From: Cyanobium sp. WAJ14-Wanaka
GTDB lineage: Bacteria > Cyanobacteriota > Cyanobacteriia > PCC-6307 > Cyanobiaceae
Length of the DNA: 64,000 bases
Reading direction: 5' to 3'
Assembly (NCBI RefSeq): GCF_024345375.1
Contig: NZ_JAGQAZ010000002.1
Location: forward strand, 248,001-312,000
Each line of letters starts with the position of its first letter. Within the stretch, counting starts at the first letter, position 1. Positions 1,898 through 10,422 of the stretch are shown piece after piece. A program made the position numbers and the translations under genes. The notes beneath the pieces were generated by a model, which was not told the DNA's origin, searched no databases, and worked only from the letters and a program-made list of their open reading frames with translations.

Positions 1898-2077
1898 GGC
1901 CTGGGCTGGCGCTGCTGCCGGGAGGTAGGGGTCCACCCTAAACAGCGGAACCATTTAGCCCTTGGCGGCAAGCCTTTGCCCTGGCTTTTGCAGCCATGCA
2001 CACCAAGGCGGGGCCAGGCGACCAAGAAGAATGGCTGCATCGTTTGCCCTGCGGGGATCTCCCTGCCTGCAAAGCCC

Positions 2078-4690
2078 ATGGCCGTCGCCCTGCTTGCCAG
2101 CTATCGCCAAGCCGAAGCCGAACGGGCCGCCCTGGGTGTGCCAGCCCTGCCCCTAGACGCGCCCCAGGCCCAGGCCCTAACCGAATTGCTGGAGCAGCCC
2201 CCCGCTGGCGAGGAGGCTTTCCTGTTGCACCTACTGGGTGAACGAATCCCACCCGGTGTGGATGAGGCCGCCTACGTGAAAGCAGGCTGGCTCGCGGCCG
2301 TGGCCAAGGGCAGCCGCACCAGCCCCCTGGTGAGCCCGGTGGAAGCCGTGAAGCTCCTGGCCACGATGATCGGCGGCTACAACGTGGGCGCCCTGATCGA
2401 GTTGCTCTCCAGCCCTGAGCCTGCCATTGCCCAGCAGGCCGCCACGGGGCTGAGCCGCACCGTGCTCGTCTACGACGCCTTCCACGATGTGTTGGAACTG
2501 GCCCAGGGCAATGCCTACGCCAAACAGGTGGTGGAGGCCTGGGCCACGGCGGCATGGTTCACATCCAAGCCAGAGCTGGCAGCGGAGATCACCGTCACGG
2601 TGTTCAAGGTGGAGGGCGAAACCAACACCGACGACCTCTCCCCCGCCACCCACGCCACCACCCGTCCAGACATCCCCCTGCACGCCACGGCGATGCTGGA
2701 AACCCGCATGCCCGGCGGGCTGGCGCTGATCAATGAGCTGAAAGGCAAGGGCCATCCGGTGGCCTACGTGGGTGATGTGGTGGGCACCGGCAGCTCCCGC
2801 AAATCCGCGATCAACTCGGTGCTGTGGCACACCGGCACCAACATTCCCCATGTGCCCAATAAGCGCTCTGGCGGAGTGGTGCTGGGGGGCAAGATTGCCC
2901 CGATCTTCTTCAACACCGCCGAAGACTCTGGTGCCCTGCCGATCGAGTGCAACGTAAGCGCCCTGAACAGTGGCGACGTAATCACGATCCGTCCTTACGC
3001 CGGCACGATCGAACGGGCAGCCGGCGAACCAAATGCCGGTGAAATCGTGGCCCGCTTTGAGCTCAAGCCCAGCACGATCACCGATGAGGTGCGCGCCGGC
3101 GGCCGCATCCCCCTGCTGATTGGCCGCTCACTTACAGACAAGGTGCGCTCCCAGCTGGGCATGGCCCCATCGGAGCTCTTCATCCGCCCGAGCGCCCCGG
3201 CCGACACCGGCAAGGGCTACACCCTGGCCCAAAAGATGGTGGGCAAGGCCTGCGGTCTGGCGGGCGTGCGCCCAGGCACCAGCTGCGAACCGCTGATGAC
3301 CACCGTGGGCTCCCAGGACACCACCGGGCCGATGACCCGCGATGAGATGAAGGAGCTGGCCTGCCTGGGCTTCAGCGCCGATCTGGTGATGCAGAGCTTC
3401 TGCCACACGGCCGCCTATCCCAAGCCGGTGGACCTCAAAACCCACGCCGAGCTCCCCGATTTCATGGCGTCCCGCGGCGGAGTGGCCCTGCGCCCCGGCG
3501 ACGGCATCATCCACAGCTGGCTGAATCGCATGCTGCTGCCCGACAGCGTCGGCACCGGCGGTGACAGCCACACCCGCTTCCCCCTGGGCATTTCCTTCCC
3601 GGCCGGCTCAGGCCTGGTGGCCTTTGCCGCCGCCATCGGCGCCATGCCCCTGGACATGCCCGAATCGGTGCTGATCAAATTTTCAGGCTCCCTGCAGCCG
3701 GGCGTCACCCTGCGCGATGTGGTGAATGCCATCCCCTACGTGGCGATCCAGCAGGGCCTGCTCACGGTGGAAAAAGCCGGCAAGAAAAATGTATTTAGTG
3801 GCCGGATTATGGAGATCGAGGGCCTGCCAGACCTCAAGCTGGAGCAGGCATTTGAGCTGACAGATGCCACCGCTGAGAGGTCCTGTGCCGGCAGCACGAT
3901 CAAGCTTTCCGTGGAAACGGTGAGCGAATACCTGCGCAGCAACGTGGCCCTGCTCAAAAACATGATTGCCCGGGGCTATAGCGATGGCCGCACCCTGGCC
4001 CGCCGCATCAAGGCGATGCAGGCCTGGCTGGCCAATCCGGTGTTGATGGAGGCCGACGCCGATGCCGAATACGCCGCCGTAATTGAAATCAACCTCGATC
4101 AACTGACTGAGCCGATCCTGGCCTGCCCCAACGACCCCGACAACGTCAAATTGCTCTCCGATGTGGCGGGAGAAAGGATCGATGAGGTATTCATCGGCTC
4201 ATGCATGACCAACATCGGCCATTACCGCGCCGCCGCCAAGGTGCTGGAGGGCCAAGGTGCCAACTCGGCGCAGCTGTGGGTATGTCCCCCAACCCGGATG
4301 GATGAGGAGATGCTTAAACAGGAGGGCTACTACGCCACCTTTGAGGCGGCCGGCTCCCGCATGGAGATGCCGGGTTGCTCCCTATGCATGGGCAACCAGG
4401 CCAGGGTCGAGGAGAACACCACGGTGTTTTCCACCAGCACCCGCAACTTCAACAACCGCCTCGGCAATGGCGCCCAGGTGTACCTGGGCAGCGCCGAACT
4501 GGCCGCCGTATGTGCCCAGCTGGGCCGCATTCCCTCCAAAACCGACTACCTGGCCGTGGCAGCAGCCAAAATCGACCCCCATAGCGCCGAGCTCTACCGC
4601 TACCTCAACTTCGACCAACTGGCGGGCTTTGCAGACGAGGGCCGGGTAATGAGCGCCGAGCAGGAGGCCAAAGTGCTGGCAGAGGTCTAA
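2078..4690 (+). CDS. acnB: Bifunctional aconitate hydratase 2 / 2-methylisocitrate dehydratase
   Basis: Interconverts citrate and isocitrate through cis-aconitate. With the ATG at 2078 the product has 870 residues, close to E. coli AcnB. The AcnB-type domain order is visible: helical HEAT-like N-terminus, swivel domain ([13 protein letters not shown]), then the catalytic domains (GGDSHTRFP). The three iron-sulfur ligands are Cys709 in GSCMTNIGH and Cys767 and Cys770 in GCSLCMG. The open frame reaches back to 1976, but the extra 34 residues are unlike the family, so the internal ATG is chosen. A fragment of a radical SAM gene begins 6-7 bases after its stop. Confidence 0.96.
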
Positions 4691-4696
4691 GACGCG

Positions 4697-4966
4697 CCTG
4701 AACCAGGAAACCCTGCTGTTTGAACCCGCCCAGCCCCAGGTTGGAGCGCTTAAAGCGGTGCTGGCCTTTCCCAGCACCTACACAGTGGGGATCACCAGCC
4801 TGGGCTACCAGGTGGTCTGGGCCAGCCTGGCCCAGCTCAGCGATCTGGATGTGCGCCCCCTGTTCACCGACCAGGGCGACCCGGCCCACGACTCCCAAGG
4901 ATGTCGGAGCCCCAATCTCGATCTGTTTGGTCTGTCTTTGAGCTGGGAACAGAATGGCCTGGCGCG
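4697..4966 (+). repeat. Long direct repeat, left copy (partner at 7043-7312)
   Basis: Imperfect direct repeat of about 270 bases spanning the start of the radical SAM gene. Alignment by eye needs no gaps. Identity falls from about 98 percent in the first 120 bases to about two thirds at the 3' end, where similarity stops near GAATGGCCT. The two copies bracket the accessory segment 4967-7042. Confidence 0.85.
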
Positions 4967-4971
4967 GTGAC
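4697..4971 (+). pseudogene. Orphan 5' fragment of the radical SAM gene (partial duplicate)
   Basis: These bases repeat the first part of the intact gene at 7104 (repeat 7043-7312, offset 2346). The first 120 bases differ at only two positions; the last 70 are only about two thirds identical. Translated from the GTG at 4758 the fragment reads LAFPSTYTVGITSLGYQVVW and onward through SLSWEQNGLAR before a TGA at 4968-4970, about 70 codons in place of 523. No cysteine cluster is present, so it cannot be a radical SAM enzyme. Many differences in the 3' half are synonymous, suggesting that it was once part of a working, diverged allele. It sits directly behind acnB, probably the ancestral site of the gene. 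Confidence 0.8.
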
Positions 4972-5003
4972 TTTCAGGAAAGGTGCCACTCCTCGGCTGC
5001 CGC

Positions 5004-5195
5004 TCAGGCGGCCAGGATTAAGGGTAGTGGCTGAATTGAATTGGGTTCCTCTGGTGGCTTGTTGATCCACACTTCAGCCGGTTGACGCCAACAGCGGATC
5101 TGCCTGCTCCAACGCGATGGATTAGCCCGGCGGGCCTTCTCATAGACGTCAATGCGCTGCTGACAAATAGCCGTAGCGGCGCCACAGTGGCGCAG
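5004..5195 (-). pseudogene. Transposase C-terminal relic, left-pointing (IS3-like DDE family)
   Basis: On the minus strand an open frame closes at 5004 and carries about 60 residues that look like the extreme C-terminus of an IS3-type transposase: LRHCGAATAICQQR, VYEKARRANPSRWSR and then AEVWINKPPEEP. In that family the corresponding stretch is the HYGRA...ANPERF...WINKP tail after the DDE catalytic core. The catalytic domain is missing, so this is a remnant. The frame stays open upstream to 5270 only because it reads backwards through the neighbouring relic. Family assignment is from motif memory, not a search. Confidence 0.55.
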
Positions 5196-5212
5196 ATGGG
5201 GCGTCACTGTGG
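5182..5212. repeat. Inverted repeat at the junction of the two transposase relics
   Basis: CCACAGTGGCGC at 5182-5193 pairs with GCGTCACTGTGG at 5201-5212 with one mismatch and a 7-base spacer. Each arm encodes the HCG codons of one relic, so the palindrome is the nucleotide-level meeting point of two oppositely directed transposase tails. Confidence 0.75.
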
Positions 5213-5390
5213 AGATGCCATGGAGATCTGCCGTCACCGGGCTGTTGTCTACGAGCAGGCACGGCAGCAAAACCCGCGCCGCTGGTCACGATCAACGCGT
5301 AGCTGGCATCAACCAAAAGTGGTTTGGATCAATCCACCACCACCTGAGGAAAACAACGCCAAAAAACCTACATTTGCGATGGCTGCCTGA
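5198..5390 (+). pseudogene. Transposase C-terminal relic, right-pointing (IS3-like DDE family)
   Basis: Plus-strand counterpart of the relic at 5004-5195. It encodes RHCGDAMEICRHR, VYEQARQQNPRRWSR and VVWINPPPPEEN and ends at 5390. About 57 percent of aligned residues match the left-pointing relic, so the two come from related but distinct elements. Both are cut at the same codon region (HCG), where a 12-base inverted repeat (5182-5193 and 5201-5212) joins them head to head. No catalytic core is present. Confidence 0.55.
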
Positions 5391-5456
5391 GCAGCAGCAT
5401 CGGCGTCATCCTTCCTGGCGGTCACCGCATCGGATACCCACTGCATACGAATCAAT

Positions 5457-5485
5457 TGACTTAAAAAGTCATGGGTGCTAGTGTA
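5457..5485 (+). promoter_or_regulatory. Candidate promoter of the AT-rich orphan gene
   Basis: TTGACT at 5457-5462 is a near-consensus -35 box, followed after 17 bases by TAGTGT at 5480-5485, a weak -10 box. The start codon is at 5506. Overlapping the -35 box is a perfect inverted repeat, TGACTT-AAA-AAGTCA (5458-5472), which could be an operator. The boxes are seen directly; function is inference. Confidence 0.33.
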
Positions 5486-5505
5486 GATCTCAAAATAAGC
5501 ATAAA

Positions 5506-6690
5506 ATGTCAAACCCAACCTTCTTTCAGCCGTTTGTCTCGACATCAGTCACCATTGACAGCACCGCCAATTCGCTGCAAGGCATCAAGAAAAACCATCT
5601 ATCTCCTAACTCATACCTTCTGGCCGGAACAACAGGAGACGGCCTTGCCCCTCCGGGCTATGGAGCCCTTTATATAGGCGCCATCGATGGATCATCCACA
5701 TCCAGTGGAAGTGGCAGCGGCACTTGGTACAACTTTTCAGTTCCTTCAACATGGAATCCACAGCAGACCTCTGCTTACGGGCCAGATATTCTCACAGCAG
5801 GAACCGGCCCTGGTGGCATCGGGGATGTGGCACTGACAGGAACTTGGATTAATTCTTCTGGGGTTACAACTGGTTGGTATTACAAAGGTGACATCTCAGC
5901 TCTCAATGGTGATACCTCGGGTGCAATTACAAAAGGCTTTCAAAATTTTCAGGCTACAACAAAAAATAATTCTCCTGCCAATTATACCTATCTCCATAGT
6001 GTTGATGGAGGATATGTAGCCGGCAACTACACCACAAGCGGTGGCCCGATTGGGCTTACAATTAATGTTGGACCAGGAGCTGGTTCTTTTGTTTTCAACC
6101 CACTGACCAATAAACAAACCAACATAACTTACTCAGACAATGCCACATACCACAGCACTTTTGGCATTTGGGAAAATGATAACAATACCTACACAGTTTC
6201 AGGGGGGGCTTCCTACTCTCGAAGATTCTTACGTAATAGAAATATGGTCAATGCTATTGCTAGGGTCGCCAAAATTTTGCCTGATGCCGCCCTGGGCCAT
6301 GGCATGCTTGCCGACATTGACCCAATTACCGGCATAGCAACCAATATTCATTATTATAATTATAATAATGACAATAACAGATATTCAAGTGTCATTACAC
6401 ATTTTCAAGGCATATACCATATGGGGGATGATGTTTATCAGGCACCTTTCTTTGCTGTCAAAACCAATGGAGAAATCTATGGTGGAAATGCTTACATACA
6501 CCGCCTGAAGAACGGGCAATTTTCAGACAACGCTATCTGGCAGACATTTGAACCAACCTTACAAGGTAGTGCTTTAGGGCCCACATCAGTCGCAGGTGAA
6601 GCCAATACAGGGATTTTTGACGGAGGCCAGCCATTCGCATCGATCGGTAGCACTCTGTCCTATTTTACGGCAGCTCAAATTCTTAAATAG
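5506..6690 (+). CDS. AT-rich orphan gene, unknown protein (accessory)
   Basis: A 394-residue protein I do not recognise. It has no evident signal peptide or membrane segment and is rich in Gly, Ser, Thr, Asn and Tyr, suggesting a beta-rich, possibly extracellular protein. The middle section has spaced phrases such as YLHSVDGGYVAGNY, SFVFNPLT and FGIWENDNNTYTVSGG, which loosely recall bacterial repeat proteins with GNY...F.Y...YGIW...Y.I.GG units; this likeness is weak. Base composition is clearly AT-richer than all neighbours, with codons such as aat, aca and tat, which points to horizontal acquisition. The ATG at 5506 has no strong ribosome-binding site but has a candidate promoter upstream. 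It lies between transposase relics and the repeat-flanked radical SAM gene. Confidence 0.7.
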   Translation: MSNPTFFQPFVSTSVTIDSTANSLQGIKKNHLSPNSYLLAGTTGDGLAPPGYGALYIGAIDGSSTSSGSGSGTWYNFSVPSTWNPQQTSAYGPDILTAGTGPGGIGDVALTGTWINSSGVTTGWYYKGDISALNGDTSGAITKGFQNFQATTKNNSPANYTYLHSVDGGYVAGNYTTSGGPIGLTINVGPGAGSFVFNPLTNKQTNITYSDNATYHSTFGIWENDNNTYTVSGGASYSRRFLRNRNMVNAIARVAKILPDAALGHGMLADIDPITGIATNIHYYNYNNDNNRYSSVITHFQGIYHMGDDVYQAPFFAVKTNGEIYGGNAYIHRLKNGQFSDNAIWQTFEPTLQGSALGPTSVAGEANTGIFDGGQPFASIGSTLSYFTAAQILK

Positions 6691-6774
6691 CAATACGACG
6701 ATGGCGAAACATAATCGCTACTTAAATATCCTCCCAACCTATTAAGCTTTATACCTAAAAGATTAAAAGCATTT

Positions 6775-6792
6775 AAATAGTTCGAACTATTT
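6775..6792. repeat. Perfect 18-base palindrome
   Basis: AAATAGTTCGAACTATTT reads the same on both strands. It lies 85 bases beyond the stop of the orphan gene. It could be a protein-binding site, or a rho-independent hairpin lacking a T tract. Its presence is certain, its role unknown. Confidence 0.8.
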
Positions 6793-6940
6793 CAAGCCAA
6801 CTCTAAAATCCACTCTTCTTCTTCGCTGTGAATGCGGTACAACTCTTATTTTTGACAGAAAAAGCGTGCCGACCCAACTAGATCAACACAATCACTATAA
6901 CTCATAAAAGTACCTCGTTACGTCAAAGCAACGTCCTGCT

Positions 6941-6984
6941 GATGCTGCTGAATTGCCGAAGTTGATGCAAATTCAACCAGCATC
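6941..6984. repeat. Imperfect inverted repeat near the right edge of the accessory segment
   Basis: GATGCTGCTGAATT (6941-6954) pairs with AATTCAACCAGCATC (6970-6984), with one bulged base and one mismatch, around a 15-base loop. No T tract follows, so it is not a standard terminator. It sits about 60 bases before the right copy of the long direct repeat and could be a remnant of an element end. Confidence 0.6.
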
Positions 6985-7042
6985 CAGCCTATGGTTCAAG
7001 CTGCCCAGGTGTCAGTCTGGGAGCAGTCAACTAGCCTCCACC

Positions 7043-7312
7043 CCTGAACCAAGAAACCCTGCTGTTTGAACCCGCCCAGCCCCAGGTTGGAGCGCTTAAA
7101 GCGGTGCTGGCCTTTCCCAGCACCTACACAGTGGGGATCACAAGCCTGGGCTACCAGGTGGTCTGGGCCACCCTGGCCCAGCGCTCCGATATGGATGTGC
7201 GCCGCCTGTTCACCGACCAGGGCGACCCGGCCCACGGCTCCCAGAGGGGTCGCGGTGCCGATCTAGACCTCTTTGGCCTGTCGCTGAGCTGGGAGCTCGA
7301 TGGACCGGTGTT
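7043..7312 (+). repeat. Long direct repeat, right copy (partner at 4697-4966)
   Basis: Covers the region just upstream of and including the first 70 codons of the intact radical SAM gene. See the left copy for alignment. The repeat starts at nearly the same short distance before the coding region in both places, and flanks the orphan-gene segment. Confidence 0.85.
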
Positions 7313-8675
7313 GCTCGAGCTACTGGAACAGCAACGCATTCCAATCTGGGCCAGCGAAAGAGACGATAACGATCCAATCGTGTTCGGTGGCGGGCCCGTG
7401 CTCACCGCCAACCCCGAACCCCTGGCGCCCTTCTTCGATGTGGTGCTGCTTGGAGATGGCGAACTGCTACTGCCTACCTTCATCGACGCCATCCAGGCCT
7501 GCCGGCATACCCCCCGAGCCGAACGCCTACACCAGCTGGCCCAGGTGCCGGGCGTGTATGTGCCATCGCTCTATGCCCCCCGCTATGGCCCAGACGGGCA
7601 GCTATTGGCCATTGAGCCAACAGACACCGGCATCCCAGCAACAGTGGCCAAGCAGACCTGGCGCGGCAACACCCTCAGCCACTCGATGGTGATCACCCCA
7701 GAGGCGGCCTGGCCCTCGATCCACATGGTGGAGGTGGTGCGCAGCTGCCCCGAGCTCTGCCGCTTTTGCCTGGCCAGCTACCTCACCCTGCCCTTTCGGA
7801 CCCCATCCCTGGATGATGGCCTGATTCCAGCGGTGGAAAAGGGTTTAGCCGCCACCCAGCGTCTCGGGCTGCTCGGGGCATCCGTAACCCAGCACCCCCA
7901 GTTCGCCGACCTACTGGCCTGGCTAGATCAGGATCGCTTTGAGGGCACCCGGGTAAGCGTGAGTTCCGTGCGGGCCGCCACCGTGACCCCAGAGCTGGGC
8001 CGAATCCTGGCCAAACGGGGCAGCAAGTCGCTCACGATCGCCATCGAATCCGGCAGCGAGCGCATGCGCCAGGTGGTCAACAAAAAACTCGCCAATGAAG
8101 AGATTTACGCCGCCGCCCGCTATGCAAAGGAAGGGGGTCTCACGGGCCTGAAGCTCTACGGAATGGTGGGCCTACCCACGGAAGAGGAGGCCGACATTGA
8201 AACCACCGCCGACCTACTACTGGCCCTAAAGAAGGCCACTCCGGGCCTGCGGCTTTCCTTTGGGGTGAGCACCTTTGTGCCCAAGGCCCACACGCCTTTC
8301 CAGTGGCAAGGAGTACGCCCAGAAGCCGAAAAACGTCTCAAGCTTCTCGGCAAACGGCTCAAGCCCAAGGGCATCGAGCTGCGGCCCGAGAGTTACGGCT
8401 GGAGCGTGATCCAGGCCCTGCTGTCGCGCAGCGATCGGCGCCTGGCGCCCGTGATCGCCGCCGCCCGCGGTCGCAACGAAAGCCTGGGGGGCTGGAAAAA
8501 GGCCTACAGGGAGCTACTGGAGCAAGGGCCAGCCGCAAACTCGGCTCCATTGCCCCCCTGGGAGGAGGTGATCCACGCCAGCTGGGATCCCGGGCGCGTA
8601 TTGCCCTGGGATCACCTGGAAGGACCCCTGCCAAAAACCACCCTGGCCAACCACCACAAAGGAGCACTGGAGTAG
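7104..8675 (+). CDS. Radical SAM protein (cyanobacterial B12-binding-like family)
   Basis: The 523-residue protein has an N-terminal cobalamin-binding-like region (LAFPSTYTVGITSLGYQ, then FGGGPVLTANPEP) and a radical SAM core with the [4Fe-4S] cluster motif CPELCRFC (Cys215, Cys219, Cys222). It continues through IAIESGSERMR and GLKLYGMVGLPTEEE, typical of the Elp3/MiaB-like half-barrel. The substrate is unknown. The start used is the GTG at 7104. The frame is open back to 7035, and the residues LFEPAQPQVG encoded upstream are also preserved in the duplicated copy, so a CTG start near 7059 is possible. The gene normally follows acnB, as its orphan fragment does here. Confidence 0.85.
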   Translation: MLAFPSTYTVGITSLGYQVVWATLAQRSDMDVRRLFTDQGDPAHGSQRGRGADLDLFGLSLSWELDGPVLLELLEQQRIPIWASERDDNDPIVFGGGPVLTANPEPLAPFFDVVLLGDGELLLPTFIDAIQACRHTPRAERLHQLAQVPGVYVPSLYAPRYGPDGQLLAIEPTDTGIPATVAKQTWRGNTLSHSMVITPEAAWPSIHMVEVVRSCPELCRFCLASYLTLPFRTPSLDDGLIPAVEKGLAATQRLGLLGASVTQHPQFADLLAWLDQDRFEGTRVSVSSVRAATVTPELGRILAKRGSKSLTIAIESGSERMRQVVNKKLANEEIYAAARYAKEGGLTGLKLYGMVGLPTEEEADIETTADLLLALKKATPGLRLSFGVSTFVPKAHTPFQWQGVRPEAEKRLKLLGKRLKPKGIELRPESYGWSVIQALLSRSDRRLAPVIAAARGRNESLGGWKKAYRELLEQGPAANSAPLPPWEEVIHASWDPGRVLPWDHLEGPLPKTTLANHHKGALE

Positions 8676-8703: not shown

Positions 8704-10422
8704 ATGTCGACTGAAGTTTTTGATTGGGCTTTCGCCCAACAATTCATTGCAGGTGGATCTGCAGCTGCCGCGGATCAAAATTTGCTGTTGGCTAACACCT
8801 CCCTCCAATCTGATCCAGAAAACCGTCTCACCTATTTGGTTTTCCTGAAGGGACCAATAGAACCTGAAAAGCTTGATCAGGCAGTACGGCAACTGTTAAA
8901 GGAAGTCATACCGGACAGCACCCCGAGTCTGCTTTTTGAACAGCTCGGGGGCTTTGCCATCGACCTCAACCAACGCCAAGCTGAGCGGCTGAGCCAAAGA
9001 CGTGAGGTGATTAGCCTGGAGCTGGATCGGCCGATGCGGCTAGATCCACCCATGCTTCAAGACTCGGAAAAGAACGACGTTTTTGTGCCCCAGGCACTTG
9101 TCAGCTATACCAACGCTATTATATCAAACCGAGAAACCGTGCCCTGGGGTGTACGGGCGATATGGCAGGGTAGAGATATATCTAGCATGGGCAACTCCGG
9201 CGCAGGCAGCTTCGCATTCGTAATCGATTCGGGAGTCCTAGCAACCACAGGTGACCTCAACCTCAATACCAGCTGGTCCCGTAGCTGGATCTCCGGCCAG
9301 GACGCATTCACGGACGATGATGGTCACGGCACCCATGTGGCGGGCACTATTGGTGCCCTAGTCAATGGGTTAGGGATGGTCGGTGTTGCACCCGGTGCTT
9401 CGATCGTTTCCCTGAAAGTGTTCGACAGCTCCGGCAATGGCAGCAGTCTCAACATCATTGCCGCAATCGATTATGCAGTATCGGTAATAAGGACTAATAA
9501 ACTTGATCTCTCAAAAGTAGTAATCAACCTTAGCCTTGCCGGCGGGCTCAACTCCGCCTTGAATTCGGCAATGCTGAATGCGGCCAATCTAGGCATCCGT
9601 TTCGCCGTCGCTGCCGGCAACAACGGGGCAGACGCCGACACAATGTCTCCAGCTAGTTCCGGGACCCACCCAAATGTATATACGGTATCAGCGGTCGACA
9701 GCGCCTATCAAATGCCCAGTTGGTCAAACTGGGATCAGGTCACCTCCACTGACCCTAACGACAGCGTCGACTTCGCGGCTCCAGGGGTAAATGTGTTGTC
9801 CTATTACACTAACGGGGCTCTAGCCAACCTCAGCGGCACCTCCATGGCCTCCCCCCACGTGGCGGGAGCTCTATTGATGGGGGGCGTAACAACCGGCGAC
9901 ATGGTCAAACCCTCGGTCGCAGGTACTGCAGACCCCTTCGCTTGGGCTATCAACTTCCCAGGCACCACCATCACCTCAAGTGCAGCTGTCCAAAATAAGG
10001 TTCTTTGGGGCACAGCCGCTAGCGACATTCTCATCGGCGGCAATGGCAACGACAGCATCACTGGGGTGCAAGCAAACGGAACCACGGGCGCAGCAATGGG
10101 TCTGGGACAGATTGACATACTCACAGGTGGTCCTGGTGCAGACACCTTTCTGCTAGGAGATTCCCGCGGGGTCTTCTACGACGACCGCAGCAACAACAAC
10201 ATCGGCCTCAGCGATTATGCCCGGATCACTGACTTCAACACCGGCATAGACAAGCTACAGTTCCACAACGGAACTTACTTCACTACTGTCAGTACAGGCA
10301 TAACTTCGATCTACTGGGATCGCAATGGCAATAACCAATTTGATACCACAGGAAAAGATCAGGACGAATTGATCGCCATGGTGACTGGCGCAATTACTAG
10401 CAAAGACATCATCTTGGCCTGA
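8704..10422 (+). CDS. Secreted subtilisin-like serine protease (S8) with RTX-type calcium repeats
   Basis: A 572-residue protein. Residues about 40-120 resemble an inhibitor I9-type propeptide (LTYLVFLKGP). The peptidase S8 domain has the full catalytic set: Asp175 in FVIDSG, His208 in DGHGTHVAG, oxyanion-hole Asn306 in AAGNNG and Ser380 in SGTSMASPHVAG. The C-terminus has hemolysin-type glycine/aspartate repeats (SDILIGGNGNDSITG, DILTGGPGADTFLLG), typical of proteins exported by type I secretion; there is no N-terminal signal peptide. No ABC exporter is in the window. A good ribosome-binding site (AGAGAGG) precedes the ATG. It is wedged between radical SAM and purU, 28 bases after the former. 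Confidence 0.9.
   Translation: MSTEVFDWAFAQQFIAGGSAAAADQNLLLANTSLQSDPENRLTYLVFLKGPIEPEKLDQAVRQLLKEVIPDSTPSLLFEQLGGFAIDLNQRQAERLSQRREVISLELDRPMRLDPPMLQDSEKNDVFVPQALVSYTNAIISNRETVPWGVRAIWQGRDISSMGNSGAGSFAFVIDSGVLATTGDLNLNTSWSRSWISGQDAFTDDDGHGTHVAGTIGALVNGLGMVGVAPGASIVSLKVFDSSGNGSSLNIIAAIDYAVSVIRTNKLDLSKVVINLSLAGGLNSALNSAMLNAANLGIRFAVAAGNNGADADTMSPASSGTHPNVYTVSAVDSAYQMPSWSNWDQVTSTDPNDSVDFAAPGVNVLSYYTNGALANLSGTSMASPHVAGALLMGGVTTGDMVKPSVAGTADPFAWAINFPGTTITSSAAVQNKVLWGTAASDILIGGNGNDSITGVQANGTTGAAMGLGQIDILTGGPGADTFLLGDSRGVFYDDRSNNNIGLSDYARITDFNTGIDKLQFHNGTYFTTVSTGITSIYWDRNGNNQFDTTGKDQDELIAMVTGAITSKDIILA

What the first reader, a model, noticed from the sequence alone, without database searches (positions are those of the whole stretch)
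4697..7312. Accessory segment bracketed by two copies of the same gene start
The first 270 bases of the radical SAM gene occur twice, 2346 bases apart, with foreign-looking DNA in between. The left copy is only a fragment, still in the expected place just behind acnB. The 5' 120 bases are almost identical, while the 3' 70 bases are only about two thirds identical, and many changes there are synonymous. So the fragment derives from a once-functional diverged allele, not from a simple decayed duplicate. The layout suggests that an incoming block carried its own full radical SAM gene, split off the resident 5' end and restored the locus.
Basis: partly seen in the sequence, partly recalled or inferred. 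Interest (0 to 1): 0.72.

Follow-up and report, generated by a model that had tools for sequence, protein, structure and literature searches.

The report
Cargo insertion left duplicated gene start
A cyanobacterium carries an extra gene beside a broken spare copy of the start of a neighbouring gene, a scar most simply read as DNA spliced into a busy exchange site of the chromosome; this kind of event is already known.

Summary
The repeat is real. Window 4698-4964 is a stop-free copy of codons 1-89 of the radical SAM gene (7044-8675), 2346 bases upstream of it. The copies differ at 9 of the first 200 bases and 22 of the last 67.

The copy sits where four related genomes have the whole gene abutting acnB. 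Two such ends, fused outward (about 4965-5427), precede a patchily distributed beta-propeller gene.

The acnB-radSAM gap is a variable slot. Three genomes of another genus share one scar: cargo X, radSAM start, acnB end, unrelated cargo Y, full radSAM. That is the footprint expected of a second slot allele stacked beside the first, so an incoming block is plausible.

Not shown: that the intact gene here is foreign (p-AU 0.267). The near-identical 5' 200 bases need later homogenisation or a local duplication.

Verdict: a genuine recombination scar of a known kind, recurrent at this slot. Side finding: the radical SAM gene appears to start with CTG in 53 of 55 family loci examined.

The parts
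2048..4690 (+). acnB, aconitate hydratase 2 (left core flank of the slot; start approximate, the ORF listing opens the frame at 1976)
   Evidence: Pfam Aconitase_2_N, Aconitase_B_N, Aconitase above cut-offs; conserved order cdsA-aroG-acnB-radSAM
4698..4964 (+). 5' fragment of the radical SAM gene, codons 1-89, no stop or frameshift; changed at residues that are the same in the 18 relatives counted (R47L, R54P, L85Q, D86N)
4965..5207 (-). 3' end of an IS3-type element (transposase C-terminus; right tip at 4960-4965)
   Evidence: 91% to G000:C4:48147-48394, the end of a longer element with rve and HTH_Tnp_1 domains; tip from where most full-length copies in G004, G005, G006, G008, G010 and G011 stop
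5201..5427 (+). 3' end of a second, related IS3-type element in the opposite orientation, fused to the first at about 5200-5207
   Evidence: 79% to G000:C2:426745-426969; tip motif CGGTGAC on the minus strand at 5427
5506..6690 (+). accessory gene, 394 aa, predicted six-bladed beta-propeller (sialidase-like fold, function unknown)
   Evidence: 28 of 400 family genomes, own included, carry a relative; model pLDDT 81, pTM 0.86; NanI Z 25.1, 9% identity; nothing significant in Pfam, NCBIfam or PHROGs
6691..7043 (.). unmatched DNA between the accessory gene and the intact radical SAM gene
   Evidence: query 6650-7043 found only 25-34-base matches, in 3 of 299 other family genomes
7044..8675 (+). 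intact radical SAM gene, 543 codons, apparent start codon CTG
   Evidence: PF19864 and PF04055 above cut-offs; start position

Best explanation
The gap between acnB and the radical SAM gene is a variable cargo slot that exchanges DNA by recombination in its core-gene flanks. In this lineage the ancestral state was acnB directly followed by the radical SAM gene. A block carrying the propeller gene was inserted so that the resident gene kept its first 89 codons behind acnB, while a complete gene was left, or rebuilt, at the right end. I infer that the right end joined through homology in the radical SAM gene and the left end without homology, with IS3-type elements at that junction (homology-facilitated illegitimate recombination, or the same outcome through an element already sitting in the gene). 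The two element copies later collapsed to a remnant of about 463 bases. The first ~200 bases of the two copies were homogenised by gene conversion, or reflect one recent crossover near base 200, and the fragment has since decayed. Shown: layout, empty state in relatives, element tips, mosaic divergence, recurrence at this slot. Inferred: direction, donor, order of events, gene conversion.
For: Directly abutting junction in G002, G003, G009 and G010, the group with which aroG and purU place the genome. In 31 further loci with acnB upstream the gap is 45 to 5095 bases; ORFs of many kinds lie in 23 slots listed, while three genomes have gaps of 45-47 bases and no room for cargo. Fragment cut at an IS3-type tip. 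Sharp change at base 200, 9/200 against 22/67 differences, reached by 0 of 20,000 shuffles; changes on the intact gene's own side also rise, 2/200 to 6/64 (Fisher p 0.003), so decay of the fragment alone does not explain it. Parallel in genus g6: G195, G302 and G347 share [X-radSAM start to base 393][last 21 codons of acnB-Y-radSAM], X unlike Y. In G302 the fragment is itself a mosaic: 30/43 identical to its own full gene over bases 1-72, then 303/319 over 73-391. A second acnB 3' end lies in the G374 slot and a decayed radSAM start in the G176 slot.
Against: No duplicated acnB end is found in this insert (best matches 13 bases), unlike in g6. The intact gene is not shown to be foreign. No donor for 6691-7043 was found. 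The head-to-head element ends need an extra rearrangement. The nearest relatives held are about 79-87% identical in acnB and radSAM, so the event cannot be dated or placed among close strains. For the g6 fragments themselves, descent as one clade is neither shown nor rejected (51/89).
Confidence: 0.55

Rival explanations
1. Local duplication. The start of the resident gene was duplicated in place, the spare copy was broken by an IS3-type element, and further insertions brought the propeller gene between the copies. No radical SAM DNA came from outside.
For: Over the first 200 bases the two copies are closer to each other than to the 20 relatives compared. Placing the intact gene with the relatives of its flanks is not rejected. 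The parts of the insert could be separate insertions.
Against: Bases 199-264 of the fragment are as far from the intact gene (45/66) as from G002 (47/66), and the differences there are more synonymous than chance. A neutral copy that old might be expected to carry frameshifts or stops; it has none, though 267 bases are few. In g6 the duplicated flank ends bracket two different cargos.
Confidence: 0.27
2. Rescue of a broken gene. An IS3-type element first broke the resident gene at codon 89, and recombination with a strain that carried the propeller gene beside an element and an intact gene then restored the locus.
For: Element tips bound both the fragment (4960-4965) and the DNA before the propeller gene (5427). 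The fragment has no stop or frameshift.
Against: The two element ends differ in type (91% and 79% to different copies) and lie in opposite orientation, so a plain crossover between them would not give this order. Neither parent state was seen in the genomes examined.
Confidence: 0.13
3. A site-specific integrating element uses the start of the gene as attachment site and carries a replacement start.
For: Gene-start fragments recur at this slot.
Against: No site-specific integrase was recognised in the three insert ORFs scanned against Pfam (not every small ORF was scanned). Breakpoints differ: base 267 here, 393 in g6, about 134-177 in G176. g6 adds an acnB end, not a fixed core.
Confidence: 0.03
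4. Assembly artefact.
For: Local repeats can be misassembled; one suspect contig was met in another genome (G232).
Against: Here the copies differ by 12% (31/267), the window lies inside a 629-kb contig of a 7-contig, 99.93% complete assembly, and analogous scars occur in other genomes.
Confidence: 0.02

Closest known systems
Homology-facilitated illegitimate recombination, as proposed for immunity-gene arrays in Vibrio cholerae (PMC5361080, passages seen)
   Same: Incoming cargo joins by homology at one end and without homology at the other, displacing part of the resident locus; repeated events stack.
   Different: There the retained pieces are immunity genes with a proposed benefit; here the scar is the start of a core gene, bounded by an insertion-sequence tip, and the intact copy lies downstream.
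Hotspots that diversify by recombination in flanking core genes (PMC5635113, passages seen)
   Same: A fixed pair of core genes with fast-changing cargo between them, often without an integrase.
   Different: The model there is double homologous recombination at the flanks; here and in g6 pieces of the flanking genes are duplicated.
Insertion-sequence-mediated gene disruption (IS3-type; general knowledge, recalled)
   Same: Element tip abuts the truncated gene.
   Different: Only two outward-facing 3' ends remain, with no whole element and no target duplication.

Membership tests
Homology-facilitated illegitimate recombination event | one junction inside long homology (radical SAM gene) | tested here: inconclusive
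   An identity step at base 200 fits a crossover or conversion edge, but donor and direction are unknown
Homology-facilitated illegitimate recombination event | other junction without long homology | tested here: met
   Fragment|element junction at about 4964/4965; identity to the intact gene falls to chance beyond it
Homology-facilitated illegitimate recombination event | single transfer event from a donor | not testable with these tools
   needs close strains or an experiment
Core-gene-flanked recombination hotspot | same core flanks, different cargo in relatives | tested here: met
   36 loci with acnB upstream of radSAM, gap 3 (the acnB stop) to 5095 bases (two of these loci are one genome, G117, and the G284 row rests on a decayed acnB piece); varied ORFs in 23 slots
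Core-gene-flanked recombination hotspot | raised recombination in the flanking genes | tested here: inconclusive
   acnB and radSAM trees do not clearly agree with aroG and purU, but p-AU 0.192 and 0.267; no genome-wide rate was measured
IS3-type insertion sequence (remnants 4965-5427) | two-gene transposase with HTH_Tnp_1 and rve domains | tested here: met
   met by the longer relative in L036; the window keeps only 3' ends, and its 88-aa ORF alone matches no Pfam family. The name IS3 is recalled from the domain layout
IS3-type insertion sequence (remnants 4965-5427) | short target duplication at both ends | tested here: not met
   left flank ends GGCG, right flank begins CATC; expected for a rearranged remnant
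TIGR03960 B12-binding radical SAM family (intact gene) | curated score cut-off | tested here: not met
   266.6 bits against 462.3; Pfam radical SAM models are met; both scans used the frame from 7104
Sialidase (propeller gene) | overall six-bladed propeller fold | tested here: met
   NanI Z 25.1, rmsd 3.5, 305 residues, 9% identity; the blade number is recalled for sialidases
Sialidase (propeller gene) | catalytic arginine triad | tested here: inconclusive
   only one arginine is invariant in the 16-member alignment; the triad as a requirement is recalled, residues were not superposed

The most novel reading that the evidence does not exclude
The acnB-radSAM slot of these cyanobacteria is a cargo-stacking site: incoming slot alleles arrive with pieces of both core flanks, are added beside the old cargo instead of replacing it, and the duplicated flank ends persist for long times, are kept alike by gene conversion, and serve as anchors for the next exchange.
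Probability: 0.25. Interest if true: 0.55.

Novelty: new member of a known kind. Interest (0 to 1): 0.36.

Why it matters
Clean double crossovers leave no trace, so it is hard to tell how hotspots without integrases gain cargo. Scars such as this one, and the shared g6 scar with an acnB end, record the joins themselves. They make the mechanism testable by comparing strains at one named slot. The practical point is that a gene-start fragment beside an intact copy need not be a simple decayed duplicate.

Tried and rejected
G232 looked like an intact parallel (two whole radSAM genes about 2.1 kb apart). It was set aside: its contig puts one copy downstream of a DnaB-like ORF (my reading), joins a 5'-truncated acnB to other sequence, and the rest of acnB lies on another contig, so a chimeric assembly is likely. 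G327 was read as one gene split by contig ends and G117 as uncertain; neither is counted. G284's upstream acnB piece is weak (46% over 69 aa) and is not counted as a scar.

The idea that the propeller gene is the resident gene of this slot was tested. Relatives lie between acnB and radSAM in G005, G006, G061, G101, G106, G168, G183 and G208, a decayed piece perhaps also in G285, but on the opposite strand to radSAM and at about 30% identity. The nearest relatives (G195, G302, G347; 49-51%) lie on other contigs than radSAM. The window's copy therefore probably arrived separately.

No phage record of 50,697 encodes a relative of the propeller protein at E 1e-5. A sialidase function was not claimed: fold only. 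A tree test for a foreign intact gene gave no rejection.

Rows dropped: L023 and L027 from the codon table (18 of 20 relatives kept); 4 of 19 propeller loci, broken or incomplete (L068, L070, L080, L081), from the alignment; four repeat loci.

Sampling bias: the 41 loci include genomes fetched because they had a second match or a propeller gene. The less biased figure is: 240 of 400 family genomes matched the gene start, 8 had two matches, and 5 of these are local pieces (G000, G195, G302, G347, G176).

The p for bases 199-267 depends on a breakpoint chosen from the same data; the 36-base sub-window (p 0.0008) was picked by eye and is not used.
Full report
What is there. acnB ends at 4690. From 4698 to 4964 runs a copy of the first 89 codons of the radical SAM gene whose complete version is 7044-8675.

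Start of the gene. Both copies begin with CTG. In G002, G003, G009 and G010 the in-frame codon before this CTG is the acnB stop, so the start that the ORF listing gives, GTG at 7104, is probably 20 codons short.

Ancestral state. In those four relatives the acnB stop is directly followed by the gene (4 of 4). aroG and purU place the window's genome with the members of this group present in each alignment (97/96 and 100/100 support). They also share with both copies a seven-codon stretch near codon 67 that the 11 other genus members compared lack. That is weak evidence, since several loci of other genera have the same length there. None of the 15 other genus members has a second match to the gene start. 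The insert is therefore most simply derived in the window's lineage, and the fragment lies in the old place.

What cuts the fragment. Bases 4960-5207 are 91% identical to the end of a longer element on G000:C4, whose two reading frames carry HTH_Tnp_1 and rve domains. Most full-length copies of that element in other genus genomes stop at the base corresponding to window 4964 or 4965, a few in G004 up to three bases further. The window and the C4 copy also share bases 4960-4963, so the tip is at 4960-4965. Bases 5201-5428 are 79% identical to the 3' end of a related element elsewhere in the genome, in the opposite orientation, with the same CGGTGAC tip at 5427. Two outward-facing 3' ends are thus fused at a short shared stretch. 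I infer a collapsed pair of inverted elements.

Cargo. The 394-residue protein of 5506-6690 has no significant match in Pfam, NCBIfam or PHROGs. Relatives occur in 28 of 400 family genomes, the window's own included. The predicted model (pLDDT 81, pTM 0.86) is a propeller, closest to sialidases by fold (Z 25.1, 9% identity). Function remains unknown. In eight other genomes a relative lies in the same slot, on the opposite strand to radSAM. The window's copy is nearer to proteins encoded elsewhere (49-50% against about 30%).

Mosaic divergence. Of 267 positions 31 differ. The best single breakpoint is base 200 (window 4897/4898): 9 of 200 against 22 of 67, reached by none of 20,000 shuffles. 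Left of it the differences look neutral (2 synonymous, 7 not), some at residues that are the same in all 18 relatives counted, as in a decaying fragment. Right of it about 12.5 are synonymous and 9.5 not, more synonymous than chance (p 0.011). Polarised with the four relatives, the intact gene's own changes rise from 2/200 to 6/64 (Fisher p 0.003), so the step is not only decay. In bases 199-264 the copies (45/66 identical) are no closer to each other than each is to G002 (47/66 and 49/66). A caveat: codons 66-73 are a length-variable linker in the family, which adds some of the difference.

Meaning. Two functional alleles had diverged, and the left 200 bases are younger. Either one crossover near base 200 made the fragment a hybrid, or gene conversion later overwrote the left part. 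G302 offers a parallel: its fragment is 30/43 identical to its own gene over bases 1-72 and 303/319 over 73-391, while it is 35/43 and 284/319 to the G195 fragment.

Recurrence. Among 400 family genomes 240 have the gene start at E 1e-8 or better, and 8 have two matches. On inspection five are local pieces in front of the whole gene: the window's, G176 (decayed, with a stop) and G195, G302 and G347. The last three share one layout: a DnaJ-like gene (X, my reading of the sequence), the radSAM start up to base 393, the last 21 codons of acnB with its stop, an esterase-like gene (Y, my reading), radSAM, purU. G195 and G302 show acnB before X; the G347 contig begins about there. The G302 fragment is decayed in its first 72 bases, and G347's has an internal deletion. 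X and Y are unrelated to each other, and each is conserved between the genomes (G195-G302 93% for both; G195-G347 87% and 83%). Most simply, one ancestral event set two slot alleles side by side. G374 has a second acnB 3' end in its slot (93% over 197 bases), and G183 a 90-base radSAM piece at 79%.

The slot. In 36 loci in which the script placed acnB upstream of radSAM, the distance is 3 bases (the acnB stop) to 5095 bases. Two of these loci are one genome (G117), and the G284 row rests on a decayed acnB piece. Varied ORFs lie in the 23 slots listed (mechanical ORFs, not tested by family searches). The window's next gap, radSAM-purU, varies too: it holds a subtilase gene, with relatives in G009 and G003.

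Mechanism. I favour a block joining by homology in the radical SAM gene on its right and without homology on its left, with IS3-type elements at the left join. The model has been proposed for Vibrio arrays (PMC5361080, passages). Recombination in flanking core genes as a driver of hotspots was proposed from a study of 80 species (PMC5635113, passages). A simple local duplication remains possible (0.27), mainly because of the 5' identity.

Not in print, as far as searched: the terms acnB, radical SAM, Synechococcus and insertion together gave no paper in the held library. Searches listed papers on islands and hotspots, of which I saw only passages of PMC5635113; no listed title or abstract start names this slot. 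Tycheposons, mobile elements of Prochlorococcus (recalled), were seen only as a search term in listings.

Side finding. In 55 family loci (54 plus the window; four repeat loci dropped; two, from G232 and G327, have doubtful contigs) codon 1 of radSAM is CTG in 53, TTG in 1 and ATG in 1. Its third base never varies, whereas CTG is used in only 35-47 of 55 at the invariant leucines of codons 6, 7, 22 and 35. Only 2 of 58 loci have another ATG, GTG or TTG upstream before a stop within the 25 codons looked at, and eight have none in codons 1-21. All 20 class-level relatives examined instead have ATG, GTG or TTG upstream of the aligned position. This points to a conserved CUG start, untested by experiment. 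Searches listed no paper on it.

Noticed in passing
window 7044-7046, and 53 of 55 family loci: The radical SAM gene appears to use CTG as a conserved start codon across the family (TTG in one, ATG in one); 20 of 20 more distant relatives examined have ATG, GTG or TTG upstream of it.
   Followed up: partly
L013-L019 and L021, just upstream of radSAM codon 1: A hairpin-like stretch, GTGAGACGC ... TCTCA, ends directly before the CTG in 8 genus members whose radSAM does not abut acnB; it could be a terminator or a regulatory site. Not folded.
   Followed up: no
window 8704-10422: Subtilase (S8) gene with one weak calcium-repeat match in the next gap (radSAM-purU); relatives downstream of radSAM in G009 and G003, partial matches in G117 and G075: a second variable slot.
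   Followed up: partly
L059, L062, L107, L114, L117, L119, L177, L183 slots: The acnB-radSAM slot repeatedly begins with a ~450-490-residue membrane protein that reads like a ClC-type chloride channel (recalled motif, not tested by a family search).
   Followed up: no
G000:C2:414-427 kb (partly in L037): Several decayed IS3-type pieces in the window's own genome, near the best match to the second element end.
   Followed up: no
L110 (G232:C4:44000-60000): Two whole radSAM genes with a truncated acnB between them and a DnaB-like ORF upstream; probably a chimeric contig, but a real rearrangement is not excluded.
   Followed up: partly
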